Positions 7,342 through 50,241 of a DNA stretch of 64,000 nucleotides are shown in pieces. This DNA comes from Bradyrhizobium acaciae (GTDB taxonomy: Bacteria; Pseudomonadota; Alphaproteobacteria; Rhizobiales; Xanthobacteraceae), in contig NZ_JACMYK010000002.1 of assembly GCF_020889785.1 (NCBI RefSeq), forward strand, positions 124,001 to 188,000, written 5' to 3'. Every line of letters begins with the position of its first letter. Within the stretch, counting starts at the first letter, position 1. The notes under the pieces were generated by a model. It was not told the origin of the DNA and did not search any database. It saw only the letters and a program-made list of their open reading frames with translations. The translations under genes and the position numbers were made by a program.

Positions 7342-7415
7342 TGGAGCGGGCGAAGGGAATCGAACCCTCGTATGCAGCTTGGGAAGCTGCCGTTCTACCA
7401 TTGAACTACGCCCGC
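7342..7415 (-). tRNA. tRNA-Gly (anticodon CCC)
   Basis: Read on the minus strand the sequence starts GCGGGCG, pairs with CGCCCGC at the 3' end, and is followed by T and an encoded CCA. The anticodon arm is GCAGC-TTCCCAA-GCTGC, giving anticodon CCC, and the T arm contains GGTTCGATTCC. The 5' end at 7415 touches the integrated element, and its first 41 bases are the left copy of the element's direct repeat. The gene is therefore a rebuilt hybrid: its 5' half is now joined to element DNA, and its original upstream region lies past 50241. Confidence 0.95.
7375..7415. repeat. attL: left 41-bp direct repeat in tRNA-Gly
   Basis: This segment is identical to 50201-50241. It covers the tRNA from nucleotide 1 to the 3' side of the anticodon stem, a usual crossover place for tyrosine recombinases because of the symmetric anticodon arm (GCAGCTT-GGGAAGCTGC on the plus strand). 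With the integrase at the far end it defines the element. Confidence 0.93.
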
Positions 7416-7617: not shown

Positions 7618-10446
7618 CTAGAAACCGTATTTATCTTTGCGAAGCTTAAACGCATTTTCTCCGCCTTCCATGACCCGCTTAATGGCTTCGCAGATTTCCG
7701 GAATGTCGATCGCGCCAGTCGCGCTAATTTTACCTCCAGACTGCTCGCCTACGACCCGGTAGTCACACCAAGCAACCAGTTCGGCGTCTCCGTTGACGAC
7801 AAGATTAGCGTTGTGGCTCGCAATTATGATTTGACGCTCTCTTTTTGCCCTCCAGATCTGCTCCACGACCTCCAGAACAACTGGATTATCTAAATCCTCT
7901 TCAGGTTGATCGATTATGAGGGGCGGCCCCGACTGGTTCAGCAGCGCTTTCAAAAGAGCCGTTGCTTGCTGACCCGCGGACGCATTGGCAAACGGAATAT
8001 AATCCCCCTCTCTCACGCGGTACTCGAAAACGGGCTCATCTTCCAGGCGCGAAAGCGATAACTCCAGCCAAGCGTCAGCGTCTAACTTGCCGCCAATCTT
8101 TGCCAAATCGGACGCCCCGATTCCCGCAGCCACGAGCGCCGCGCACTTCGGAACGGTCTTTGCTCCGCCCTGAGGATCGTATGTCGCCAGTTGCTCAAGT
8201 TCGTTCAAGATTACCATCCAGTGCGCATTGGGATCCTTCGCGCTTTGAACAGCCCCTCCGATGGCATCAAATCTATCGCGTCTGACGCCAGACCCCGCGA
8301 CAACGTCCCGCAATCGCTTCATCACTTGGTCGACGCCCGCACCGACTTTGACCGTAGCGCGAATTTCTCCGGACGATAACTTTGTCAGCTTCGCACACTC
8401 CGCCGTAATTCGCTTCGCGCGGGCCGCTTTAGCAGCAAGCCATTTCTTCCGAACTGCCTCATACCGCTCTTGGGGCTTCCCCAACCCAGCAATTTCCTTG
8501 CGCGTATTTGCCAACGTATTCCGCAGCGCCGCAATGCGCTGCTCCATTTGAGCGAGTTGGGCTAACGTCGACTGATGCGTAGATGCGCGCTGTTTCGCTT
8601 TTTCATACCTCTCATTGAACGCCTCCAGCGCGGTTTGCCAGGCCTCAACGGATTTCTTGAGCTTGCCTACGTATTCGTCATCTTCGTTCTTAAATTCGCG
8701 CTCTACCGCCAACAACCGGTCTGCCGCATCTTTTGCTTTCCTTACAAAATCAGCCGCCGCATCTTGAATCTCTGTGATCACTCTTGTTTCGGGGAGCGCT
8801 GATGGCGCCACCTCGGCGTCTGATGGCAGCGGCTCCAGCGACATTTTGAAATTTCTAATCTCGGTAGAAATGGCGTCAACATCGCTGAGCCACACTGCGA
8901 CAGCCTCATTAGCCGTGTCGTAAAGCGGCTTTTGGTCGAGAGTTTTCGTGTCATCCTCAGATAAGCCGGTCAACGACGCTCGCATGTTGGCAGTCTGCTC
9001 GACCAGCGATGCGAGTAGCAGCTCATCGTTGGAAGCTTGTTGCTGAAGCTTTCGCAGCCGAGACACCGCGGCGTACTCCTGCCGGATTTCTGCAGAGGTC
9101 CGGTCAAACTGCTTCTCAAGATCGTCCAGATCTCCGCGAATTGGCGATTCTATAAACCTTGACAGCTCTTCGAGTCTGACACTCACGTTACTCAATTGCT
9201 TCTGGCTATATGCTTGGATCGGCAGCAACGTTCGGATATCGAGCTCCGTGCATGGGGCAAACGAACCCGTCCCAACTTTCAATAAGAGTTCATCAGTTTT
9301 GCTATTTCGGCGCACGACGTGCTCGATACCGTTGACGGTAAAACCGACTTGCACCGTAGCGTTCACGGCTTGCAGAGTTTTCTCAACCAGCACTCGCCTT
9401 CGGTGCTGATAGTTCGGCAATTCATCATCGGCTAACGGAGTCGGCACCTGGTCGCACAACCCCCATCGTAGATATTCCAAGATCGTTGACTTGCCGGTGC
9501 CCCGCCCACCGATCAGAGCGTTGTATTGTGGATTGAACTCGATCTGGATCGGTCCGAGGAACACGCTATTGGTGACATTTAGCGATGTAATGGCTACGGC
9601 TGGTATAGTCGGGCGTTCTTGCGCGATTCGCGATTCTTGAGCCAGGCAGGCTTGTCGCAACGCTTCGGCCGTTGGAGTGGCCCACTTAACCCAAGTGGTG
9701 TGTTTGCCTAGATCCGCATGATTTTCGCTTCGGTTATCAGACGTTTGAAAGAGCGCAATTCGCTTATTGCCGTAGCTACCCGCTTTTCCGTCCAAGATAT
9801 TTCGATTGCCCTTGCCGAGCTGAGTGACCGCACCATCAAGATAGCCGCCCACACAGGGCATCGCGGCGTATTTCCCCGCAGCTCCAGTTCGCAACAGCGT
9901 GTCTGAACCGCCTTCGCTCACATTTGGAAGAATCGTGTATTTGTTTTTTAGATATGTAAACTTGTCCAGTTCCTCTTTTAGTTTCACCAGGGTGGTGATG
10001 TGGTCCAGCCGTTTCGTTTCGATAGTCTTCGACTCGGTGTCAGCGCTTGGCACAATTCCTAAGGCATTAAGGACCAATCCGAATTGATCTTCCGGCAAAC
10101 TCGCATCAAGAATGAGCAGCGCTTGACAAGGAACTCCTAGTGTAAGTTCAATTCCGGGGAAGACGACGATCTGCTTTCCCGGAGCTACCGGCTTTCCGTG
10201 TTCGTCGCGCTCTGCACGTGCAGCATCGCGTATGAATTTCACAAAGCAAAGGTCGTGATGGTCAGTGATGGCGACAGCATCAAGCCCTTTTGCTCGACAG
10301 GCGGCTATTAGGGATGCGGCATATTGCTTGCGGTCTTCGGGCGTGATGCATTCTGAACCTTTCCAGTTGCGATCTCGCGGGGTATGTACCTGGAAATCAC
10401 ACTTATAAAAGTGAGCGCCGTTATCCACCTCAAATTCCTTTTCCAT
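7618..10446 (-). CDS. TrlF-type PHP domain / SMC-like ATPase
   Basis: A 942-residue protein. Residues 10-130 look like a PHP metallo-hydrolase domain (KCDFQVHTPRD, AITDHHDL, a histidine-rich metal site). An ATPase follows: Walker A IGGRGTGKST near residue 315, a long coiled-coil-rich middle, an ABC-like signature NASAGQQAT, and Walker B PLIIDQPEEDLD with a final ASHNANL switch histidine. This is the layout of proteins named TrlF-family AAA-like ATPases, related to SMC/RecF-type ATPases and often found in defence islands. It is the last gene of a minus-strand group with the NYN gene 105 bases upstream, so an ATPase-controlled nuclease function is likely but unproven. Confidence 0.85.
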   Translation of the reverse strand: MEKEFEVDNGAHFYKCDFQVHTPRDRNWKGSECITPEDRKQYAASLIAACRAKGLDAVAITDHHDLCFVKFIRDAARAERDEHGKPVAPGKQIVVFPGIELTLGVPCQALLILDASLPEDQFGLVLNALGIVPSADTESKTIETKRLDHITTLVKLKEELDKFTYLKNKYTILPNVSEGGSDTLLRTGAAGKYAAMPCVGGYLDGAVTQLGKGNRNILDGKAGSYGNKRIALFQTSDNRSENHADLGKHTTWVKWATPTAEALRQACLAQESRIAQERPTIPAVAITSLNVTNSVFLGPIQIEFNPQYNALIGGRGTGKSTILEYLRWGLCDQVPTPLADDELPNYQHRRRVLVEKTLQAVNATVQVGFTVNGIEHVVRRNSKTDELLLKVGTGSFAPCTELDIRTLLPIQAYSQKQLSNVSVRLEELSRFIESPIRGDLDDLEKQFDRTSAEIRQEYAAVSRLRKLQQQASNDELLLASLVEQTANMRASLTGLSEDDTKTLDQKPLYDTANEAVAVWLSDVDAISTEIRNFKMSLEPLPSDAEVAPSALPETRVITEIQDAAADFVRKAKDAADRLLAVEREFKNEDDEYVGKLKKSVEAWQTALEAFNERYEKAKQRASTHQSTLAQLAQMEQRIAALRNTLANTRKEIAGLGKPQERYEAVRKKWLAAKAARAKRITAECAKLTKLSSGEIRATVKVGAGVDQVMKRLRDVVAGSGVRRDRFDAIGGAVQSAKDPNAHWMVILNELEQLATYDPQGGAKTVPKCAALVAAGIGASDLAKIGGKLDADAWLELSLSRLEDEPVFEYRVREGDYIPFANASAGQQATALLKALLNQSGPPLIIDQPEEDLDNPVVLEVVEQIWRAKRERQIIIASHNANLVVNGDAELVAWCDYRVVGEQSGGKISATGAIDIPEICEAIKRVMEGGENAFKLRKDKYGF

Positions 10447-10551: not shown

Positions 10552-11187
10552 TTACGTCGATTTGTTCGGAGTGGCCGCTGCAGAACTTGCGGCGGGCATT
10601 TTGGCAGTCGGACGTCTGCGCATGTTGAGAGGTTTCACGTTCGTGACTCCTTGCTCGAAGACGATGCACTCCGCGTAGTCGTCGAGCCTGATGAAGCAGC
10701 CGACCTGTGCGGCCCAGGTCTTGAGGGCCTTCGCGCAGGTATCATCCCATGACAGCACTTCAATGGCCCAACCCTTGTTGTAGAGGCGCTGCAAGTCTGC
10801 GTGAAAGCCGACGCCGTCGGCATAGCCACGGCCGTCCCCAGTAAGAAGAACAGCGACCTGGGGCTGCGTCTCATCGATCGCAGCGCGCAACATCTGAACT
10901 TGTAAGGCTTGATCTACGGCCTGCTCTTTGCCGCTGGCGGCGCCTCTCTCGAACAACTCGGGCTTGATGCCAGTCTTTTTAGCCAGCTGTAACCAAACAG
11001 CCCAAACCTCCGGAGGGACAGAACCAACACAGTGTCCGCGCGCCAGCTGGCGGCCGCCGATGGCGAGCTTCAGCAGGTTCTCGAAGTCGATACGGGCGCC
11101 AGTTGTGCGACGTCCGAGTTTTTGTAGTACCGCTTGTGCACCAATGTAGATATTTGAATTGTCCCAAAACACGTGAACTTTTGCCAT
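10552..11187 (-). CDS. NYN/PIN-like ribonuclease domain protein
   Basis: A 211-residue protein with ribosome site GGAAGAAACTG before ATG. HVFWDNSNIYIG near the start, EQAVDQALQ in the middle and AVLLTGDGRGYADGVGFHADLQRLYNKGW give the acidic residues and the order of the NYN branch of PIN-fold nucleases, which use aspartates to bind Mg2+ and cut RNA. The last 30 residues are a basic, low-complexity tail. It sits between the AlpA-like gene and the TrlF-type gene on one strand, and may be a paired effector of the latter. The RNA target is unknown. Confidence 0.85.
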   Translation of the reverse strand: MAKVHVFWDNSNIYIGAQAVLQKLGRRTTGARIDFENLLKLAIGGRQLARGHCVGSVPPEVWAVWLQLAKKTGIKPELFERGAASGKEQAVDQALQVQMLRAAIDETQPQVAVLLTGDGRGYADGVGFHADLQRLYNKGWAIEVLSWDDTCAKALKTWAAQVGCFIRLDDYAECIVFEQGVTNVKPLNMRRRPTAKMPAASSAAATPNKST

Positions 11188-17937: not shown

Positions 17938-20547
17938 TTACCCCGGCGTCGCCGGGGTTTTTCTTGCGCCCGAGCGCTTTAGATCTGGGAAATCGGCATA
18001 CGCGCGAATGAATGACAGCCAACTGCCAGGATCTGCTCGGGAAGCTTTCACCAGTTCCATCACTCCTTGTGGCCAGCAATCCTCACCTTCAAAGTCCGAA
18101 CACCAGTCTCGCAATGTCGACTCGACAAGACCGCCAATTAACGTGCCCTTAATACCGGCAAATGCCGAATGCAGCGCGAAGGATGGATTCCGTTCTTGGA
18201 GCCTGTAAAGCTCGGCCCAGAACGCAGCGTATATCGATTGAATGGCGCTGATCGAACCGAAGCTAATACCACACAAGGGAAGCAACTTCTGTCCCCGCCC
18301 GCGGAATAGGTTCAGAATTGTCCGCAACAACTTTAATCTGCGCTCTCCCCAGACCTCATCGTTGGTCAAAAACTGCGAACGATCGATAACTCCAAGAAGC
18401 TCATCCATTTGCTTCGGACTACGCTTGTTCTTAAGCAGCAATGTCAGATAATCACAAGAGGAGTGGGTCGGCCTCATATTGCCGCGGAGCTCCTCCATCC
18501 TCTCCGCGATGGCAATCAAAGTCCTCCAGTCGACGATAGCAGCTTGGCCGTCTATCGAAAATTCGTGGGTGTAGCTAATCTCGATAGCCAGAGCTGCCGC
18601 GTTTCGAATAACTGCATAGTCCTTCTCGTCGAACGCGTTCGCGAGCGCCGCTGTAATATGTTCTTTTGCTCGAAGAATATCATCTTCGGACCGACCCCTA
18701 CCACTTTGAAGTAACGCGTCCGCCTCCACGAGGCTAATGCGTCTGGAAACCTCGCCTCCTTCCGGAATGTCCGCAGCGCACGTCGCCCTTATTGAACGTG
18801 CGGCTGCCAGAATCCAATCTCCAATTTTTGGATGTTCTTCGTCTACCAGTCGCCGCCCTAGTTCACCGCCAGATTTGCTATCCCAGCGAGTCGCTGAAAG
18901 CATTTGCAGGAGGATCGCATACGCCGTCCATCCGGCGGACGTCGAATTACCTTGATAGACTGTAAGCGCTACCGCCCCATAGAGCTGCCACTTCGGAAAT
19001 CGAAATTCACCCCAACTCTGCCTGGCGGCCCCGAAGCACCACCGAAATAGGCTCGCAGTCAAAGCCGGATGTCTAAACTCCAACCGGAAGTTATTAAGCT
19101 GGGACGCATGTGAACCTGAGAAGTCATTTCGCAGCTCGCCATCAAGAACTGACGGCAGCTCCTTCAGATGATGCCGACAAGCTACAATTGTGTCCTCATT
19201 CAAAGGCGGGTCCAGATAATTTAACAACGCGATGTACGTTCGCAGATCAGACGGGGGTTGATGTGTGGGCGTGTGATCTCGTAGAAACTGAACAAAGACC
19301 ACCAGAGACAAGGCTCGCTGACCGTTTTGATCGAGCTCGCTAAGTAGTCTGCCAAACCTCTGATCCAGTAAGACGCCGCGCGTTGCTTGATATTGTGCAG
19401 GCCAAAGGCCGGACAGTCCGCCACGAATGGTCAACCCACTCTTGAACAATTTCTCTAGATCACCTTTCGCGAGGTTCGGGGGCGCTACTCTATTGCTGAT
19501 GATCACGTCGACGAATTGTTGCGCTTCACTCGGACGCACTGGCGGCACGGCAATGTGCTTCTTTTCGCCAACTACACCTGAAAGTAAGTCCGCAACCTTC
19601 TTTCGGTAACGAGTTTGGGTGCCCAGCAGAAGGCAACCAAACGGCTCATCCGAAAATCGGTTTCGCAGCCACGATGGGATGGCAGCCAACCGGCCGGCGT
19701 CGTCGAAGACGATCAAAGCTCCTTCTCGAGGAAGCTCGTTACCCACCGCCTCGAGTGCTTCCGGTGTCGCGACGCGAAATACGCACCGTTTGAGCTTTAG
19801 CGCCTCGAAAGCAGATTGCAGCAATACCGTGCTGGTGCCTTCTCCGATAGGCCCATGAACAATTACAATATCGAACTGGGTCGAGGACTCCACTATTTCT
19901 GAAACGACCGGACGTCGCACGGCCGAATGGATCGCAGCAGCCGGAGTGGGTGCATGCCCCCTCAAAAACTCGGAAGCCCGCTCGGTGAAATCGACGCCCG
20001 CCTCGAAATCTGAGAGATACAGCCGCCTCACTCCTGGCGGCTGCGCAGTCCAATGATGAAACGGAGTAGCGTCGATTGACGATACCACGCCAGGAGCGTC
20101 GTACCTACTAAGCTCTATGGTTTTCAATTCATTCAGATAGTCCGTTAAACGTGGCACTATGATGTTTGACAGCCTCTCCCACGTTAGCTGCTGTGCGGAA
20201 TGTACAGCTTCAAAACTTTCCCAACTACCTTTTTGGCGCGCGCAAACTCGTCTGGCCTTTTTTTGCCATTCTGGGTGATATCCATCGTGCGCGAGCACCG
20301 CTAGTAGTTTTCTCGTTGAGGTGAGCTGAGGTTTTAGAGGATCTCTTTTTTTTCGATTCTTGTGCGCCGCCTTTCTCCAAGAACTCAATTCCGGCTGTGG
20401 AAATCCGATGCAATCATGGAAGAGCTCTTTCATTCGCTCGTGCCCCTTCAGTATCTCGGCATCCCCGTAGGCAAGGTAGGCCCAACCGAAAAAGTCGGCC
20501 ACCAGATCAATCAAAGGCTTGGGAGGAGGTGGTATTGCTTCGTCCAT
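17938..20547 (-). CDS. STAND-like P-loop protein with altered Walker A
   Basis: An 869-residue protein; I chose the ATG at 20547 over the TTG at 20598. Residues 1-200 are a helical domain. A P-loop core follows: VIVHGPIGEGTST at 228-240 and Walker B EGALIVFDDAG at 275-285, with FGCLLLGTQTRYRKK as sensor region. The C-terminal 450 residues are helical and TPR-like, as in STAND signalling ATPases used in immunity. The Walker A position normally held by lysine is threonine (GEGTST), so nucleotide hydrolysis may be lost or unusual. No effector domain is recognised. It is convergent with the small gene before it, and its last codons form the terminator stem. Confidence 0.7.
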   Translation of the reverse strand: MDEAIPPPPKPLIDLVADFFGWAYLAYGDAEILKGHERMKELFHDCIGFPQPELSSWRKAAHKNRKKRDPLKPQLTSTRKLLAVLAHDGYHPEWQKKARRVCARQKGSWESFEAVHSAQQLTWERLSNIIVPRLTDYLNELKTIELSRYDAPGVVSSIDATPFHHWTAQPPGVRRLYLSDFEAGVDFTERASEFLRGHAPTPAAAIHSAVRRPVVSEIVESSTQFDIVIVHGPIGEGTSTVLLQSAFEALKLKRCVFRVATPEALEAVGNELPREGALIVFDDAGRLAAIPSWLRNRFSDEPFGCLLLGTQTRYRKKVADLLSGVVGEKKHIAVPPVRPSEAQQFVDVIISNRVAPPNLAKGDLEKLFKSGLTIRGGLSGLWPAQYQATRGVLLDQRFGRLLSELDQNGQRALSLVVFVQFLRDHTPTHQPPSDLRTYIALLNYLDPPLNEDTIVACRHHLKELPSVLDGELRNDFSGSHASQLNNFRLEFRHPALTASLFRWCFGAARQSWGEFRFPKWQLYGAVALTVYQGNSTSAGWTAYAILLQMLSATRWDSKSGGELGRRLVDEEHPKIGDWILAAARSIRATCAADIPEGGEVSRRISLVEADALLQSGRGRSEDDILRAKEHITAALANAFDEKDYAVIRNAAALAIEISYTHEFSIDGQAAIVDWRTLIAIAERMEELRGNMRPTHSSCDYLTLLLKNKRSPKQMDELLGVIDRSQFLTNDEVWGERRLKLLRTILNLFRGRGQKLLPLCGISFGSISAIQSIYAAFWAELYRLQERNPSFALHSAFAGIKGTLIGGLVESTLRDWCSDFEGEDCWPQGVMELVKASRADPGSWLSFIRAYADFPDLKRSGARKTPATPG
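17941..17962 (+). terminator. Rho-independent terminator
   Basis: CCCCGGC-GTC-GCCGGGG followed by TTTTT. It ends the 17701 gene. The same bases encode the last residues of the convergent STAND-like gene. Confidence 0.85.
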
Positions 20548-20706
20548 GATACTCAGCCTGTCAGATGCCAGCCTTCCATGACCAAGTCTGACGCCCAAAA
20601 TGTTCGCCAGCTGGCTAACTCAAATCGGGGGTGGAGGATAATTCGTACAAACGGTCTTATTCCGCTCGTGGTCTTGCACCACAAGCATCAACCTCAGGAG
20701 ACTATC

Positions 20707-23471: not shown

Positions 23472-24368
23472 TTACGGTTTGCGCAGCGCTTGATTTAAGA
23501 TCATTGCCAACCGCACGCCCGCTTTGCTTAGCTGGATTGCGACGTCATTTGTTGCGGTCGTCACATAGTCGTCTGGCAAACGAAAGCTTCCGCGTGCATT
23601 GGGGGTTGGAAGCTGACCGTACACGTCATCCTTGGACAAAGCGAATGCTTCCTTGGCCCAGTCGTCCGCGTTTCCCGCCTGCCACTGCGTTTGCTGTTCG
23701 TTCGTGATGTGCCCAATGAGATCGGAGGCAATCGTTCGAGGGTCTGGGCCCAACTGGTCTACGAACTCGGTGTCCCAGAAATGGTGAAGGTTGCCGGCGC
23801 TTAATCCAGCCGCCGATACCCGCTTGGCATTGCCGCCTCGATCGTGATCGTCGGAACTGTGCAATGGCTGGTGCACATCGCCGACGAAGTGAAGCAAGAA
23901 TTTGAGCGCGGCGACCTGCTCCTCGCTATCTGTCGCGGGATTGGCGAGCTCGGCCGCAAACTCCTGAATCTTGTCGACCACACAATCGGCCGGCGGCCCG
24001 TCAGAAGCGGGCGAGCCATTTGGCACGGCCGGATGATTGAAGCAGGCTTCGTCGAAATTCGGAGCAGCAATCTCAATATCAACAAAATGCCACTGCCGGG
24101 TTCGTTCGCGAGCATTGTTTACGTTCGCGTCCCGATACTTGTCTGCCCACGTAGCTGCCGACGCTATATCATGAGCGGTCAGAGGATCAGTATCTGCGGC
24201 CAGGAGAGCATTCACCCGTTTGCGCACATCCGCATCTAGAAAAGACTGCGCCACCAGAGCCACCACTTCATGGCCTTCATCGCCCCAAGCGAGGGCGCTC
24301 CTTATATTTGAGCAGCTGAGAACTACTCCACAGGCGAGGATAGCCAAGCTCGATACGACTCGGATCAA
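23472..24368 (-). CDS. Secreted S1/P1-type nuclease
   Basis: A 298-residue protein starting at a TTG that follows GGAGGT by 6 bases. After the signal peptide the mature protein begins WGDEGHEVV (W28), the N-terminal tryptophan that binds zinc in this family. Further zinc ligands lie in AATWADKYR, RQWHFVDIE, LLHFVGDVHQPLH and HHFWDTEF. S1/P1 enzymes hold three zinc ions and cut single-stranded DNA and RNA and 3'-nucleotides. As a periplasmic or secreted enzyme it may scavenge phosphate or nucleotides or degrade foreign nucleic acid. It stands alone. Confidence 0.92.
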   Translation of the reverse strand: MIRVVSSLAILACGVVLSCSNIRSALAWGDEGHEVVALVAQSFLDADVRKRVNALLAADTDPLTAHDIASAATWADKYRDANVNNARERTRQWHFVDIEIAAPNFDEACFNHPAVPNGSPASDGPPADCVVDKIQEFAAELANPATDSEEQVAALKFLLHFVGDVHQPLHSSDDHDRGGNAKRVSAAGLSAGNLHHFWDTEFVDQLGPDPRTIASDLIGHITNEQQTQWQAGNADDWAKEAFALSKDDVYGQLPTPNARGSFRLPDDYVTTATNDVAIQLSKAGVRLAMILNQALRKP

Positions 24369-31915: not shown

Positions 31916-32296
31916 ATGACCAAAGGACGCCAACGCGCGAAGGCCAATAATTTAGCCGATCCGATTTTCAAAGTGATCGCGCGCCACCGGGACGTATCAA
32001 AGGACTACGATGACGCCGGCGCCATATGGTCAAAATTTATCTCAGGGCCCGAATATGAGGCCGCAGGGAAGATTGTCGACAAAAAGCACGCTCCTCTCGA
32101 GAGGCAAACAAAGCTCCTTATGCGCTCAAAGCCGACCACAATGGCCGGCACAATCGCTCTGACCCGCTACGTCGCTGGCTTGCGGTTGTGGCAGATGCCT
32201 AACGAGGAAGATTGGTATGCAAGCTTCTTGGGCGGCTTGGCGGATGTGCTGGGGGCAATTGCAAGCGAGGCTGCCATCCGACAAGTCAGATCGTGA
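31916..32296 (+). CDS. Hypothetical protein
   Basis: A 126-residue protein from ATG 31916 (GGAA lies upstream). It begins MTKGRQRAKANNLADPIFKVIARHRDVSKDYDDAG and is mostly helical, with a hydrophobic patch TIALTRYVAGLRLW and a final LGGLADVLGAIASEAAI. Such short helical proteins are frequent hypotheticals in Bradyrhizobium. No function can be given. Confidence 0.6.
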   Translation: MTKGRQRAKANNLADPIFKVIARHRDVSKDYDDAGAIWSKFISGPEYEAAGKIVDKKHAPLERQTKLLMRSKPTTMAGTIALTRYVAGLRLWQMPNEEDWYASFLGGLADVLGAIASEAAIRQVRS

Positions 32297-32573
32297 GCCG
32301 ACTGAACAACAATCAACCGTCCCGATTTTTGCGCCCGTGCCCAACCGGTCCAGTCGCGCTGACCGCGCCAGCGACGTTGGCAGGGATACTTGGCCGAATG
32401 ACTGAGAAATTCAGGCTCCAACTCACACGCTCTACAGGTGTACTCCGATTACATCACAAGGGCGCGATCCGTACCAATTGATGAGGGTCGAAACAAACTG
32501 GTTGCTAGAGCAGCACCGATCGCCTTATGGTTGGATGATTTATTGAAGCCATTTGCTCACCCTCCGACCGCGC
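32297..32573. other. Leader before the tryptophan-related operon
   Basis: About 280 bases without a firm gene. A frame at 32438-32701 (GTG start, MYSDYITRARSVPIDEG) runs into the next gene in another frame and has no ribosome site. I see no tRNA, T-box or trp-codon leader peptide. Confidence 0.4.
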
Positions 32574-34520
32574 ATGATTTCAAAGCCCATTATCGAACTG
32601 CTAAGCACAGTGAGTCTGAGCGACTACATTCGAGTATGTCGGGAAACGGGCCGGGGAAAGGTCGACCGATCCGCACGGATGGAGTTGGTTACTACACTTG
32701 AGCGTGTCTCGTCGGCATATGCGACGGCCGCAAACCTCAGTCACGAAGAAGAGCGCTTGTCGAGCTTAGTGAGTGACATTCTGAGCTCAGAGCGCGCACT
32801 TCTGGATCATCCGATACCGCGATATCCCATCTATACAAATCTTGCGATCCTCAACCGGTTCATCGGCGTCTATTCACATCCGAGCATCCAAGATACATGG
32901 GCGCGATGTCGAAAGGCCCTAGCCGTACTGTGCGATGATTGGCTGTCTTTCGAGCGACACGCCTTGGAGTGTTTCGAACGGGCGAAGACGGGCGCGACTG
33001 AAACACCAGGGCGAAATTTTCCGGAGAACGCCGTTCGCAAGCGGATCGAGGCTCTTGAGCTCCTCTGTTCATTCCTGGCGAGCGTGGATCGGCCAACCAT
33101 TGCGTCGATTCACAACGGTGTACCTGCTAAACACCCAATCGATTGGATCTACTACGCGCTCGAACATGATGGTGCCGTTGGATTGGCCCACCTGAGCGCC
33201 TTACCTCAATCCGACTTTCACGACGAATATCTATTTCTGCGAACGCTGCATCTTACGGAAGTATGTTTTTGGGCAATCATTACTGGAATCCGTGCAGCTA
33301 CCCAAACATACGCGAGAGACGAGCTGGGCGTAACGCTGCTTGCTTTAAAGGAATGTAAATTCTTCGCCGAATTCATTGTGCGCGCTCTATCAGTATTTCA
33401 CACCATGCCCTATGAGAGTTTTTTCGATGGATTTCGAGTGGCTACGGGCGATTCGAGCGCTGTCCAATCTGAAAAGTTCCAACATCTTGAAATCATCAGT
33501 CGCGGCATCTCGGAAGAAAAGCGGTCCGCTCTACGAACCAAAAAAGAGTTGTCGTGGCTTGCCGACTGGAGACCGGGACCTGAAGCTACCCTGCAAGGTC
33601 TACTTTCATCAGTAGAACGCTCCAGCGTGGGGCTCGCATCGAGTCTCCGCGCCGAACTCTTTGGGCTCGACCGCAGCTTGCAGAGCTGGCGCAACCTTCA
33701 TCTCGGTATCGCCCGCCGCTACCTTCCTGAGGGTACAGTTGGCACCGGAGAGGAAGGTGTGACGTACCTCGAAAAACACTTTCAAAATCCGGGGCTCTTT
33801 ACGCAAGTCGATGCAAAAAAAGCGCCTCCAACGGGACGAGCCGTATCGGAAAACGCTTTCGTCACATCTGTCGATCTCTTGGGAATAAGGATAGGGTTTA
33901 TTATTGCGCGCGACGTTCCAGGTACCGCATTTGCCGAAGCAATCGAGAGTCTCGCCGATCAAACCAAGGATCGGTTGAAAGATTTGTCTCGCGACGCAAA
34001 CTATGCATTGAGCAAATTGTTCAGCTACTACGACCCGATTTTCGCGAGGCACGGAAAGCCGTTTCCGCTTAAGAAGCAGCTTAAAGAAGCCATGAAAAAC
34101 GGCCTCCCCGAGAGACCGGTTTCGAGATTGTTGCTATCGCTAGAGCTGTCTACCGGGCTTCTTATGGGTTTGCACGATGGAAGCGGGCTTAGGTATCCCC
34201 TTCGGGTAACTACAGCGTCGGAAGGACAACACTTTGAAAGTATGAATGGCAAGACGGTGGCCTTGAAATCTGAAGAACTGATTCTCGCCGACGAGGTCCG
34301 CGCGTTTGCCTCTTATGTGCAAGGCTCCGATCGACGCACCTCGGTTGCGGAGACGAATGGAAATAACTTCAAAGAACTCTTGTTTGTGGTCTTCGGAGCT
34401 CCAAAGCTACCCGAAGGAGATTTCGAAGCCGCTTTGGATTTCGTGCAAACGGCAGCGTTTTCAATGACGGGGCGAAAGCCCGATGTCCAGTTGGTGACCA
34501 CGAAGCTTGCCCATGCCTGA
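32574..34520 (+). CDS. Tryptophan-2,3-dioxygenase-like / B3-B4 fusion protein
   Basis: A 648-residue protein (ATG 32574). Residues 1-205 are helical and unassigned. Residues 210-415 follow the tryptophan dioxygenase family: HDEYLFLRTLHLTEVCF (216-232), FFDGFRVATGDSSAVQS..F..LE (283-306) and SWRNLH (371-376) ending in VGTGEEGVTYL (389-399). H376 aligns with the proximal heme ligand. The distal histidine position reads Leu225, with His226 one step later, and the arginine of the family's FQSxQFR segment, which holds the substrate carboxylate, reads Gln303. Residues 425-648 resemble the B3/B4 domain of phenylalanyl-tRNA synthetase (ELILADEVRAFASY, RRTSVAETNGNNF). It overlaps the next gene by 8 bases. 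A heme protein acting on an unusual tryptophan form is inferred. Confidence 0.72.
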   Translation: MISKPIIELLSTVSLSDYIRVCRETGRGKVDRSARMELVTTLERVSSAYATAANLSHEEERLSSLVSDILSSERALLDHPIPRYPIYTNLAILNRFIGVYSHPSIQDTWARCRKALAVLCDDWLSFERHALECFERAKTGATETPGRNFPENAVRKRIEALELLCSFLASVDRPTIASIHNGVPAKHPIDWIYYALEHDGAVGLAHLSALPQSDFHDEYLFLRTLHLTEVCFWAIITGIRAATQTYARDELGVTLLALKECKFFAEFIVRALSVFHTMPYESFFDGFRVATGDSSAVQSEKFQHLEIISRGISEEKRSALRTKKELSWLADWRPGPEATLQGLLSSVERSSVGLASSLRAELFGLDRSLQSWRNLHLGIARRYLPEGTVGTGEEGVTYLEKHFQNPGLFTQVDAKKAPPTGRAVSENAFVTSVDLLGIRIGFIIARDVPGTAFAEAIESLADQTKDRLKDLSRDANYALSKLFSYYDPIFARHGKPFPLKKQLKEAMKNGLPERPVSRLLLSLELSTGLLMGLHDGSGLRYPLRVTTASEGQHFESMNGKTVALKSEELILADEVRAFASYVQGSDRRTSVAETNGNNFKELLFVVFGAPKLPEGDFEAALDFVQTAAFSMTGRKPDVQLVTTKLAHA

Positions 34521-35517
34521 TTCAGTATTCCTGGAACGTGGTATTTCTGCGCTGAAGAGCGATGCAGTTGTGCATCTTGGAAATTTCTTCGGAGCGTTGA
34601 AGGGCTCACTCAACGGACAAGATATTTACGCTCGAAACAATTTTCTCTTCATCGCGGATCGTCACTATCTGGTGGACTTTGACGCGGATGTCGACCTGAT
34701 CGGACAGAATTACGCTCTCGTTAGAGAGTTTCTCGCCCTTGGATTTAACCCGCAGCGCACAGTCATTTATCGACAATCCGATATTCGCGAGCTGTTTACG
34801 ATTATGTGGCTGCTAAATTGCCACACGCCTGCCAAGGAACTGCTGGACAGGAAGGATTACACGGGAGCCATCGACCCTTCGCTCGCTCGCGTTCTGTACC
34901 CTCAGTTGATGGCGGCGGACGTGTTGGGTTTGCGTGCGAGTCAGGTCTATGTGGGACCTGACGAGGCTGATCACGTATCATATTGTCAGGAAATTGCCGG
35001 ATTCATCAACTCCGCGGCGAAGAAGCTTGCTCTTCCTGTTCCCCGGTGGAGCTGCGTAACGTCCAACGTAATTTCCGGTCCAGGCGGGCTTACGATGTCT
35101 CGCACCAACAAGAACATTATCCCAATCTTCGGAGACGACCGAGCCATTAGAAGATGCTTTCAGCAGATACCCGTTGCCAAGGTTCGCCGACGCGAAGCGA
35201 TAAACCCCGATACCGATATTTGCTTTCAACTTTTCCAACTCATGTCAACGGCGGAAGACGCCGCCGATGTCAGCGCGAAGTATCGTGAGGCAGAGGTCGA
35301 TCAAGACGATGCCCGCAAGCTCGTCGAGACGCAGTTCTTCAAATACTTTGATAAGGCCCGCGAACGAAAGAAGGAGAATTCGATGTCAGACTCAGACATC
35401 GAAGAAATCCTTCAAGCCGGACAACAGCGGGTAAGGAGAGAGATGCGCGACACCCTCGCCATTCTTGAGGATATGTTATATTATAACGTAGGAACCAGAT
35501 CTTCTCGAAGTTTCTGA
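34513..35517 (+). CDS. Divergent tryptophanyl-tRNA synthetase paralogue
   Basis: A 334-residue class I synthetase-like protein, the usual length of bacterial TrpRS. Its start ATG overlaps the stop of the fusion gene (ATGCCTGA). SDAVVHLGNFFGALKG (16-31) is the HIGH region. FLFIADRHYLV, TIMWLLNCHTP, LYPQLMAADVLGLRASQVYVGPDEADHVSYCQEIAGFIN follow the TrpRS core. The KMSKS loop is GGLTMSRTNKN (190-200), so both lysines are changed (Thr, Arg). It may charge tRNA slowly, make tryptophanyl-adenylate, or bind Trp-tRNA. Housekeeping TrpRS would not be on a mobile element in this form, so a dedicated role with the fusion protein is likely. Confidence 0.82.
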   Translation: MPDSVFLERGISALKSDAVVHLGNFFGALKGSLNGQDIYARNNFLFIADRHYLVDFDADVDLIGQNYALVREFLALGFNPQRTVIYRQSDIRELFTIMWLLNCHTPAKELLDRKDYTGAIDPSLARVLYPQLMAADVLGLRASQVYVGPDEADHVSYCQEIAGFINSAAKKLALPVPRWSCVTSNVISGPGGLTMSRTNKNIIPIFGDDRAIRRCFQQIPVAKVRRREAINPDTDICFQLFQLMSTAEDAADVSAKYREAEVDQDDARKLVETQFFKYFDKARERKKENSMSDSDIEEILQAGQQRVRREMRDTLAILEDMLYYNVGTRSSRSF

Positions 35518-35533
35518 CAGCGGAGCCTACTCA

Positions 35534-35806
35534 ATGCACATCTCGACACCGAGCCAAGCACTCGAGCTTCCAAAAGGAACGCTTGAGGTGGTAAGTAAGA
35601 CAGAGCGCGGTCGCATCTGCCAGCTCTATAAGTTCACGAGTGCCGAAGTCATCGATGCTGCAGGCGCTCTTCTCAGTGAAAAAGTGGAGCTAACTGGCTT
35701 CACCGTTCAAGCAGAAATACTCGCATTCCGTGCCAATCACCTCGGATGGAAGGATTTTGAAGAGGCATTTGCCTTGCACGGATCTCGCAGCTCTCGTTCT
35801 GGTTAG
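35534..35806 (+). CDS. Third gene of the TDO-like/TrpRS-like operon, unknown
   Basis: A 90-residue protein 16 bases after the TrpRS-like gene, with GGAG 9 bases before its ATG. Sequence MHISTPSQALELPKGTLEVVSKTERGRICQLYKF, then VEVQAEILAFRANHLGWKDFEEAFALHG-like strands and a helix; a compact alpha-beta domain is likely. No signal peptide and no metal motif. A strong terminator follows directly, which fixes the operon as three genes. I do not recognise the family; a tRNA- or peptide-carrier role would be speculation. Confidence 0.7.
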   Translation: MHISTPSQALELPKGTLEVVSKTERGRICQLYKFTSAEVIDAAGALLSEKVELTGFTVQAEILAFRANHLGWKDFEEAFALHGSRSSRSG

Positions 35807-35815
35807 ACTTAAAAT

Positions 35816-35843
35816 GGGTTTCCTTGCGGAGGCCCTTTTTTTT
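35816..35843 (+). terminator. Terminator of the TDO-like/TrpRS-like operon
   Basis: GGGTTTCC-TTGC-GGAGGCCC pairs over 8 positions with two G-U pairs and is followed by eight T. It lies 10 bases after the stop of the third gene. Confidence 0.88.
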
Positions 35844-35928
35844 GTGAAGCAGCGCGCCTGCAGCTCCGAAAACGGCGCCGTTGTCGATAATAATGCGAAT
35901 CGCCATGAGACGAGGCCGTTATACAAAA

Positions 35929-35956
35929 CGGGAGCCTCGCCGTAACGAGGCTCCCG
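35929..35956 (-). terminator. Terminator for the DUF3768 gene side
   Basis: CGGGAGCCTCG-CCGTAA-CGAGGCTCCCG is a perfect 11-bp stem. Read on the minus strand it is followed by TTTTG, so it most likely ends minus-strand transcription from 36457. Confidence 0.7.
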
Positions 35957-36121
35957 CGTGACCGCACCGGTGGGAGCACAGAAGCCCATGCAGAAGCGCT
36001 TCCATGGCAAGTCTCCAGACGTAGCCCGCGAACAGCACTTGCCCTGCCAAAGTGGAAATCTGCTCGCGTCGCGATGGCTGGCGATCACATTCCCTGCTTG
36101 CGCAGAGCTCTACGCAATCGC

Positions 36122-48803: not shown

Positions 48804-50051
48804 CTAATCTACTATCTCACGCTCGATAGCTCGACCCGGGATCTGGGACCTTCGCCAGGTCCGTACACGGTTGGAGAATTTGCCAGCATCTTCAAGCTCG
48901 GCTCCATGCACATGAGAATAGGGAGTGAGGCTCTCACTTCGTTCTTGGATAGCAGTTTCAGTTTCATTACAAGCGTTTTCAAGCTCGGGAAGCGCTTCGA
49001 TACTTCGGGTTAGCTCCGAAGCGAGTAGCTGCTTTATAAACCCTTCGTATTTATCAACGGCGTCTCGCATTTCAGCTTGATACTTGTAGTTCTGGTAGAT
49101 GCCGACGATGCCGCTGCGCGTACCCGACACGTGATTTAAGAGTTGCTCGGTCACTTCGAGCGGGACACCAAGCCGCTGCATGATTGTCGCGTAGGTGCGC
49201 CTCAGATCATGGTGCGTCCAGTTGGTAACGCCACAGAGCTTGTCGAGCTTCGGCTTGTACCGCTGCCAATTTGTCGATGGCCGTACCCTACTTATGAAAG
49301 CAGCAGCCATGTTCGGTATCGGCACCGTGTGCTCGTACCCATTCTTGGTGCCGTCAGCAGGAATGGTGACGCACCCGTTCTCAAACTTATATTCGGGAAA
49401 ATGCGAACTCTCGGTGAGACGCTGGCCGCAGAGTGCCAAAAGCCATATGAGCGCCTTGTACGGTTCGTAATCGAGTTTATTTGCCCCGAGGAGCACCGTT
49501 TTCAGCTCCGCATCACTGAGGACGCGTCGGCGAGGTATATAGCTGTACGGGCTCTCTAGCCCCGTGCAAGGACTGCTTTTGAGATACCGAGGAGTGCACC
49601 AATTGAAGAACGTGCGGATGTCGTTGAAGGCGTGTGCCGCTTCCGACTTTGCTTTGACGGCTTTGATGGCGTCCTGCACATCCTTGTGCGTGATCTTGTC
49701 GATGGTCTTTGTCCAAGAGAAGTATTTTTTGAGGAGCCTGTTAGTCTCGTAGCTCTCGCGCTCGCTCCACTCCCCTTGCTCTAGGTACTCGTCGCGAGCG
49801 TCCTCGAAGGATGGCGCTTTCGAGGGTTCGTAGGAGGTCCCCAAGGCAATAAGTGCACGTTTGCGCGCATCCGCCAAACTTAGTTCTGGCCAGAAACCTA
49901 TACTCACCTTGGTGCGCGACGGCTGCTTGACGACGTGCCACGTCTTGCGTTTCTTGCCGATGCGGATGCCGAAGCCTGGGGTTTTGTCGTCGTAGAAGTT
50001 GCCCTCTTTGAGGGAGCGAATGGTGATATCGGTGAAATGAATGGTCGCCAT
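48804..50051 (-). CDS. Tyrosine integrase of the element
   Basis: A 415-residue phage-type integrase. Catalytic residues are visible: ALCGQRLTESS (Arg), THHDLRRTYA (His-x-x-Arg), LLNHVSG (His) and GIYQNYKY (nucleophile Tyr). N-terminal DUF4102-like arm-binding region FTDITIRSLKEGNFYDDKTPGFGIRIGKKRKTW. It adds a C-terminal tail of about 85 residues after the tyrosine. It lies 150 bases from attR and reads away from it, the normal layout for a tRNA-site integrase. Confidence 0.95.
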   Translation of the reverse strand: MATIHFTDITIRSLKEGNFYDDKTPGFGIRIGKKRKTWHVVKQPSRTKVSIGFWPELSLADARKRALIALGTSYEPSKAPSFEDARDEYLEQGEWSERESYETNRLLKKYFSWTKTIDKITHKDVQDAIKAVKAKSEAAHAFNDIRTFFNWCTPRYLKSSPCTGLESPYSYIPRRRVLSDAELKTVLLGANKLDYEPYKALIWLLALCGQRLTESSHFPEYKFENGCVTIPADGTKNGYEHTVPIPNMAAAFISRVRPSTNWQRYKPKLDKLCGVTNWTHHDLRRTYATIMQRLGVPLEVTEQLLNHVSGTRSGIVGIYQNYKYQAEMRDAVDKYEGFIKQLLASELTRSIEALPELENACNETETAIQERSESLTPYSHVHGAELEDAGKFSNRVRTWRRSQIPGRAIEREIVD

Positions 50052-50200: not shown

Positions 50201-50241
50201 CAGCTTGGGAAGCTGCCGTTCTACCATTGAACTACGCCCGC
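50201..50241. repeat. attR: right 41-bp direct repeat (5' half of tRNA-Gly)
   Basis: Identical to 7375-7415 and in the same orientation. It holds tRNA-Gly nucleotides 1-41 but not the 3' half, so it cannot make a tRNA. The DNA past 50241 should be the original upstream region of the tRNA-Gly gene. Confidence 0.93.

What the first reader, a model, noticed from the sequence alone, without database searches (positions are those of the whole stretch)
32574..35843. Three-gene operon: TDO-like/B3-B4 fusion, TrpRS paralogue and a 90-residue partner
Three tightly packed genes (8-base overlap, then 16 bases, then a strong terminator) join a heme tryptophan-dioxygenase fold, a B3/B4 domain of the kind that handles tRNA in phenylalanyl-tRNA synthetase, and a tryptophanyl-tRNA synthetase paralogue. 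All three activities point at tryptophan and tRNA. The dioxygenase fold keeps the proximal heme histidine (H376) and the GTG loop, but the carboxylate-binding arginine of the family reads Gln303 and the distal histidine position reads Leu225. A substrate whose carboxylate is esterified, such as Trp-tRNA or Trp-AMP made by the paralogue, would fit these changes. The operon could modify or destroy charged tRNA-Trp, as an immune or toxic act, or make a tryptophan-derived product. I know of no described system with this combination.
Basis: partly seen in the sequence, partly recalled or inferred. Interest (0 to 1): 0.95.

Follow-up and report, generated by a model that had tools for sequence, protein, structure and literature searches.

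The report
Tryptophan oxygenase fused to tRNA editor
A likely mobile DNA island in a Bradyrhizobium-like bacterium carries three adjacent genes, for a protein predicted to join a heme tryptophan-oxygenase fold to a tRNA-editing fold, for a remodelled tryptophan-tRNA synthetase and for a small partner, which would together likely strip a wrong tryptophan look-alike off its tRNA and oxidise it, a combination for which our literature searches found no description.

Summary
The operon is real and conserved. A 648-residue fusion is predicted to join an IDO/TDO-like heme-oxygenase part (residues ~10-411) to a B3/4 domain (~421-644) whose best structural match is CtdA, the canavanyl-tRNAArg deacylase. 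A TrpRS paralogue and a 90-residue protein follow. dN is far below dS for all three genes. A gammaproteobacterial relative encodes oxygenase, B3/4 and TrpRS as three adjacent genes. Oxygenase and TrpRS distances match (r = 0.96, 14 pairs). The distal histidine is indeed lost (L225). The TrpRS keeps its Trp pocket and HIGH motif but has a remodelled ATP loop. The operon sits in a 43-kb island bounded by a tRNA-Gly repeat; three relatives lie near conflict-type genes. Best reading (0.35): a tRNA-Trp editing module that strips and oxidises a toxic Trp analogue, as CtdA plus canavanine catabolism does for arginine. Rivals: Trp-starvation immunity; analogue biosynthesis with self-protection. No activity was tested.

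The parts
32574..34520 (+). Gene 1: 648-aa fusion of an IDO/TDO-like heme-oxygenase part and a CtdA-like B3/4 editing domain (folds predicted)
   Evidence: dN 0.139 / dS 3.64 against B. valentinum
32574..33806 (+). IDO/TDO-like part (residues 1-411); R223, L225, H226, R288, S295, H376 and the GTG of 390-392 mark the predicted heme pocket
33834..34505 (+). B3/4 editing domain (residues 421-644); D535, E568, D573 and R588 shared with standalone B3/4 proteins
34513..35517 (+). Gene 2: TrpRS paralogue; HLGN and Trp pocket kept, KMSKS reads TMSRT, GxDQ reads GPDE
35534..35806 (+). Gene 3: 90-aa protein without Pfam or NCBIfam match; relatives seen only in Bradyrhizobium
35816..35843 (+). Intrinsic terminator-like stem and T-run after gene 3
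   Evidence: 7 such sites found in 32200-36000 against 4.1 expected, so not significant alone; its place after the last gene fits
7375..7415 (.). Left 41-bp direct repeat, part of the tRNA-Gly gene (7342-7415): proposed left end of the island
50201..50241 (.). Right 41-bp direct repeat: proposed right end of the island
   Evidence: GC goes here from 54% (48-50 kb) to 64% (50-52 kb)
48804..50051 (-). Tyrosine integrase beside the right repeat
   Evidence: Phage_integrase, Arm-DNA-bind_3

Best explanation
The operon is likely a strip-and-oxidise editing module for tRNA-Trp: the B3/4 domain would hydrolyse a wrong, tryptophan-like amino acid off tRNA-Trp and the fused heme-oxygenase domain would then oxidise the freed amino acid. 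Housekeeping TrpRS has no editing domain and accepts tryptophan look-alikes (recalled), so a toxic analogue would be charged onto tRNA-Trp. The TrpRS paralogue, which keeps its tryptophan pocket, HIGH motif and whole predicted fold but has a remodelled ATP loop, would present tRNA-Trp or the analogue to the editor rather than act as an ordinary synthetase. The 90-residue protein would be a Bradyrhizobium-specific helper. Shown here: the gene order, conservation, low dN against dS, conserved residues and the island-like setting. Predicted: both folds. Inferred: heme binding, deacylation, oxidation, the analogue and the order of steps.
Against: No substrate, transporter or regulator points to a tryptophan analogue. 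The CRR of the standalone proteins reads ASY in the fusions, so the pocket differs. Two relatives (L010, L052) have oxygenase plus TrpRS without a B3/4 hit in the fetched DNA, and two (L011, L012) have the fusion without a TrpRS hit. Conflict-type neighbours fit an immune role better. The distal histidine is lost, so the oxygenase reaction may not be TDO-like.
Confidence: 0.35

Rival explanations
1. Immune or abortive system: on phage infection the oxygenase destroys tryptophan and the B3/4 domain strips tRNA-Trp (or removes Phe/Tyr mischarged onto it), so that translation stalls at Trp codons; the TrpRS-like protein is sensor or guard.
For: The operon is cargo of a 43-kb island that also holds a protein matching PADLOC's Ppl (E 3.5e-45) and a STAND NTPase domain. 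In L090 a GAP1-N1 / DO-GTPase1 / GASH / GAAD-phosphoesterase cassette lies about 5-12 kb from the fusion (its reading as a conflict system is recalled); DO-GTPase1 occurs in 8 of 98 genus genomes, G238 (the source of L090) among them. L007 has a Schlafen-like ORF, a KAP/QatA-like protein and two SoFic-like proteins; L008 has Nmad2 and Nmad3. Sporadic: 3 of 265 genus genomes, the window's own included. In human cells IDO1 and TrpRS act together under interferon-gamma (PMC7760169, start of abstract in a listing; co-induction recalled).
Against: None of the three proteins matches a PADLOC model, nor do the STAND protein, Nmad2 and Nmad3 or three of the four L090 cassette proteins. A genome search with the Ppl model at E 1e-30 did not list even the window's copy. 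No relative of the fusion in viral contigs, phages or plasmids. Islands carry many kinds of cargo, and which neighbours count as defence was decided after seeing them. The Rheinheimera relatives sit beside an NRPS-sized gene, annotated as NRPS in L011.
Confidence: 0.25
2. Biosynthesis with built-in self-protection: the oxygenase makes a non-protein tryptophan derivative, the TrpRS paralogue resists or activates it, and the B3/4 domain clears it from tRNA-Trp.
For: The wider family (73 of the 80 loci, without B3/4 or TrpRS hits) often lies with kynurenine-type genes: an Aminotran_5 cluster in 43, FAD monooxygenase in 23, cyclase in 22 of 80 loci (only the Photorhabdus proteins were annotated, the rest by clustering with them). 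The Rheinheimera L011 fusion follows a three-module NRPS and precedes HlyD and ABC-transporter genes. TrpRS copies give indolmycin resistance, and TrpRS II works with NO synthase to nitrate Trp (PMC9437257 passages).
Against: No biosynthetic or export gene turned up among the Bradyrhizobium neighbours that I scanned, though not every neighbour was scanned. The KMSKS loop is lost in the window's clade (10 of 10), against a working resistant synthetase there. The wider family carries Gln, not His, at the residue after L225 (73 of 73).
Confidence: 0.2
3. The oxygenase acts on the amino acid while still esterified to tRNA, and the B3/4 domain only docks the tRNA.
For: Fusion of an oxygenase to a tRNA-handling domain; loss of the distal His; TrpRS II is listed as nitrating Trp on Trp-tRNA (PMC9437257 table passage).
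Against: The arginine that binds the free carboxylate is Arg in 98 of 98, the Thr of the GTG motif is kept in 19 of 19 rows of A1 though not in the two Rheinheimera rows, and oxygenase and B3/4 are separate polypeptides in L009.
Confidence: 0.1

Closest known systems
CtdA, standalone canavanyl-tRNAArg deacylase (B3/4 family; 9mkl, 9f7e; PMC10018355)
   Different: Here fused to a heme-oxygenase fold and linked to a TrpRS relative; CRR of the standalone proteins reads ASY; no activity tested
IDO / TDO / PrnB / MarE heme-dependent aromatic oxygenases
   Different: Distal His position is Leu/Ile/Val, with a His next to it in 23 of 25 fusion-type rows; C-terminal tRNA-editing domain
TrpRS II with NO synthase (Deinococcus radiodurans)
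   Same: A second TrpRS working with an oxidative heme enzyme on tryptophan
   Different: Other heme-enzyme fold, no editing domain (recalled); TrpRS II keeps aminoacylation (PMC9437257 passage), whereas here the ATP loop is degenerate
Indolmycin-resistant TrpRS1 and other self-resistance synthetases
   Same: Extra TrpRS gene of a distinct lineage
   Different: KMSKS lost in the window's clade; no antibiotic genes among the neighbours scanned
IDO1 plus TrpRS of interferon-treated human cells
   Same: Pairing of a Trp-degrading heme oxygenase with a TrpRS
   Different: Analogy only; unrelated regulation, no fused editing domain

Membership tests
Tryptophan 2,3-dioxygenase (TIGR03036 equivalog) | Score over the curated equivalog cut-off (390.7 bits) | tested here: not met
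   52.1 bits
Tryptophan 2,3-dioxygenase (TIGR03036 equivalog) | Distal histidine (XcTDO H55) | tested here: not met
   Leu225; L, I or V in 98 of 98 family sequences
IDO/TDO-type heme-dependent aromatic oxygenase superfamily | Fold with proximal heme histidine (XcTDO H240) | tested here: met
IDO/TDO-type heme-dependent aromatic oxygenase superfamily | Arginine binding the substrate carboxylate (XcTDO R117, MarE Arg118) | tested here: met
   R288; 98 of 98; MarE Arg118 role from passages; XcTDO R117 role recalled
IDO/TDO-type heme-dependent aromatic oxygenase superfamily | Bound heme and oxygenase activity | not testable with these tools
   Needs purified protein
B3/4 aminoacyl-tRNA editing domain (CtdA/PheRS beta) | B3/4 fold | tested here: met
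B3/4 aminoacyl-tRNA editing domain (CtdA/PheRS beta) | Pfam B3_4 gathering score (29.3 bits) | tested here: not met
   21.3 bits; 23.3 bits in the genome search
B3/4 aminoacyl-tRNA editing domain (CtdA/PheRS beta) | Deacylation of a mischarged tRNA | not testable with these tools
   Needs an assay
Tryptophan--tRNA ligase (TrpRS) | HIGH-type motif and Trp pocket | tested here: met
   HLGN; YPQLMAAD with M132 and D135 invariant in 19 of 19 rows of A2; role of these residues recalled from B. stearothermophilus TrpRS
Tryptophan--tRNA ligase (TrpRS) | KMSKS loop | tested here: not met
   TMSRT; first Lys lost in 10 of 10 of the window's clade; of the other 49 rows it is kept in 48, the exception (L052) having lost the motif
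Tryptophan--tRNA ligase (TrpRS) | NCBIfam equivalog cut-off (TIGR00233, 176.75 bits) | tested here: not met
   105.7 bits
Known anti-phage defence family (PADLOC-DB 2.0.0) | Match of an operon protein to a PADLOC model | tested here: not met
   0 families at E 0.01 for each of the three proteins

The most novel reading that the evidence does not exclude
A bacterial counterpart of the human IDO1/TrpRS response: an island-borne immune operon that starves an invaded cell of tryptophan. The oxygenase burns tryptophan, and the fused editing domain removes Phe or other residues mischarged onto the emptied tRNA-Trp (tryptophan-starved human cells read Trp codons with Phe; PMC8942854, start of abstract in the listing), so that ribosomes cannot slip past Trp codons, while the ATP-loop-less TrpRS holds tRNA-Trp.
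Probability: 0.15. Interest if true: 0.97.

Novelty: new variant of a known kind. Interest (0 to 1): 0.8.

Why it matters
No described enzyme that I know of or found joins a heme oxygenase to an aminoacyl-tRNA editing domain. If right, proofreading of tRNA and destruction of the offending amino acid are coupled in one protein, TrpRS (which lacks editing of its own, recalled) gains a trans-editor, and a synthetase with a dismantled ATP loop gains a selected role. If the immune reading is right, amino-acid starvation becomes a bacterial defence strategy. Either is directly testable with three small genes.

Tried and rejected
Gln303 as carboxylate site: rejected by alignment to XcTDO. Plain TDO or plain TrpRS: rejected by equivalog cut-offs and motifs. 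Pseudogene for the TrpRS: rejected by dN/dS (NG86 on the window/L007 pair, dS high; for the farther pairs dS could not be computed, and YN00 worked for one pair only, the small gene, at 0.243/0.951). RNA switch upstream: no Rfam match to E 1; one sRNA family match in L008, not followed up. Conserved promoter region: alignment of three upstream regions shows no clear block. Viral, phage or plasmid carriage: none found. The 90-aa protein as a peptide substrate (pearlin-like): its C-terminus is not conserved, so dropped. NRPS substrate of Rheinheimera: positions were recalled, the script found two of three A-domain regions and gave a partial code for one; neither looked like the Trp type as I recall it; inconclusive. 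Prevalence of Ppl in the genus: the search rang nowhere, not even on the window's own copy, so no rarity is claimed. The fold list covers residues 9-449 best; families absent from it are not excluded. DNA context of most metagenomic relatives (e.g. P0005, P0008, P0012) could not be fetched (metagenome scans capped at 0). Eight of the 14 oxygenase/TrpRS pairs (and the same operon labels in the tree) rest on equal contig length; for one of them (P0004/P0024) DNA of a contig of that length was read in L090. Pocket geometry in the models was not measured.

Papers: PMC10018355 outline and sections 17, 18, 22; PMC11904535, PMC12945691 and PMC9437257 passages only; PMC7760169 and PMC8942854 start of abstract in a listing only. 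Searches behind 'no description found': (open-licence PMC papers only).
Full report
What is there. The window lies in an 8.47-Mb assembly whose nearest named relatives are Bradyrhizobium. Three + strand genes at 32574-35806 overlap by 8 bases and then stand 16 bases apart, followed by a terminator-like stem. Gene 1 encodes 648 residues, gene 2 a TrpRS relative, gene 3 90 residues without any Pfam or NCBIfam match. The own genome holds a canonical TDO on another contig and two other tRNA-synt_1b genes, one of which is the TrpRS used as 'canonical' below.

Active sites. In XcTDO numbering F51, H55, R117, S124 and H240 correspond to window F221, L225, R288, S295 and H376; the GTG motif is 390-392. 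R117 is Arg in 98 of 98 family sequences (25 of the fusion-type lineage, the window included, and 73 of the wider family). H55 is Leu, Ile or Val throughout. The next residue is His in 23 of 25 fusion-type rows (Gln in the two Rheinheimera rows) and Gln in 73 of 73 wider-family rows. Gln303 aligns with XcTDO R132. The MarE paper (passages) reports His55 and Arg118 as its substrate contacts, Arg118 to the carboxylate. In the B3/4 part D535 (16 of 19), E568 (16 of 19), D573 (19 of 19) and R588 (19 of 19) are shared with the standalone proteins (15, 15, 15 and 14 of 15), but the standalone CRR reads ASY.

The TrpRS paralogue. On a tree of 59 TrpRS sequences the 14 operon-linked rows plus 5 rows of unknown context (P0028, P0034, P0036, P0038, P0051) are split from the other 40, the canonical one included, with support 99 (quick method; Streptomyces L052 and the canonical row are long branches). 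In the window's clade of 10 (9 operon-linked and P0028; support 91), the first Lys of KMSKS is lost in 10 and HLGN/T stays in 10. GxDQ reads GxDE in these 10; of the 12 other rows printed, 11 keep GxDQ and L052 reads GxDP. dN/dS against B. valentinum is 0.148/2.13 for TrpRS, 0.139/3.64 for the fusion and 0.194/1.82 for the small gene (NG86, dS near saturation). This is a remodelled, selected protein, not decay.

Who has it. The protein search gave 19 hits, one of them the window's own protein. A scan of a collection of 84,980 species genomes gave 102 relatives, 80 kept. Of nine loci of the fusion-type lineage whose DNA I could read (window, L007, L008, L009, L010, L011, L012, L052, L090), TrpRS is adjacent in 7, B3/4 is present (fused or next gene) in 7, and all three modules in 5. 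L009 encodes them as three genes, with an intact KMSKS. The small gene is in the window, L007 and L090 only. In the genus 3 of 265 genomes have the fusion, the window's own included. Samples of 391 family and 337 class genomes, with a stricter limit and few candidates scored per genome, found only the window's own. Oxygenase and TrpRS distance matrices correlate at r 0.96 over 14 pairs, 0.95 without L052 and 0.81 over the 9 pairs left when five near Bradyrhizobium-type rows are dropped; 0 of 5000 permutations reached any of these.

Setting. GC is about 51-59% from 7 to 50 kb against about 62-68% outside. A 41-bp direct repeat joins the tRNA-Gly gene (7375-7415) and 50201-50241, with a tyrosine integrase at 48804-50051 beside the second copy. 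The island also holds two genes with TrwB-like matches (one just under Pfam's cut-off), a Replic_Relax protein, a protein matching PADLOC's Ppl, a STAND NTPase domain and two serine recombinases. Of the four other proteobacterial TrpRS-linked loci, L090 has a GTPase-associated cassette 5-12 kb from the fusion, L007 has Schlafen-like, KAP/QatA-like and SoFic-like genes, and L008 has Nmad2 and Nmad3. For L009 I read neighbours as conjugation genes from their sequences only, without a family search. Island cargo is mixed by nature, my choice of 'conflict' neighbours was made after the fact, and no background rate was measured beyond DO-GTPase1 (8 of 98 genomes).

Reading. The B3/4 part predicts removal of an amino acid from tRNA; the kept carboxylate arginine predicts oxidation of a free amino acid; the TrpRS relative predicts that the tRNA is tRNA-Trp. 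The closest published logic is CtdA: an editor placed beside the degradation genes of the antimetabolite that it clears, in rhizosphere bacteria (PMC10018355, sections 17, 18, 22). I therefore commit to a strip-and-oxidise editor against a tryptophan analogue, at 0.35. Starvation immunity (0.25) explains the neighbours better. Biosynthesis with self-protection (0.2) explains the wider family, in which an Aminotran_5 cluster occurs in 43 of 80 loci, and the NRPS-linked Rheinheimera fusion. Nothing here measures activity.

Noticed in passing
window 7342-50241: A 43-kb low-GC element bounded by a 41-bp repeat of tRNA-Gly(ccc), with tyrosine integrase, Replic_Relax and coupling-protein-like genes; the operon is its cargo.
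   Followed up: yes
window 7618-10446 (-): 942-aa AAA protein with a PADLOC Ppl match (E 3.5e-45; not listed by the genome search), next to a NYN-domain gene (10552-11187).
   Followed up: partly
window 17938-20598 (-): 886-aa protein with a novel STAND NTPase domain (nSTAND_NTPase5); no PADLOC match.
   Followed up: no
L022:3919-11769 (Photorhabdus) and clustered genes in many of the 80 loci: A kynurenine-type cluster holding both a TDO relative and a second, distal-His-less TDO-like protein with Aminotran_5, FAD monooxygenase, Aminotran_4, cyclase and ATP-grasp genes.
   Followed up: partly
L011:1-13624 (Rheinheimera; L012 similar by ORF size): TDO-like/B3/4 fusion directly after a three-module NRPS and before HlyD and ABC-transporter genes, without a TrpRS hit.
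   Followed up: partly
L052:9668-11997 (Streptomyces sp. PR69): TDO-like gene overlapping a TrpRS relative that has lost both HIGH and KMSKS.
   Followed up: partly
L010:10001-14909 (Ktedonobacteraceae MAG): TDO-like plus TrpRS followed by a heme-NO-binding (H-NOX) protein and a PLP-dependent decarboxylase.
   Followed up: no
window 23472-24368 (-) and L090 upstream of the fusion: S1/P1 nuclease gene in the window (Pfam) and a similar-looking gene about 2 kb upstream of the fusion in L090 (by eye); possibly coincidence.
   Followed up: no
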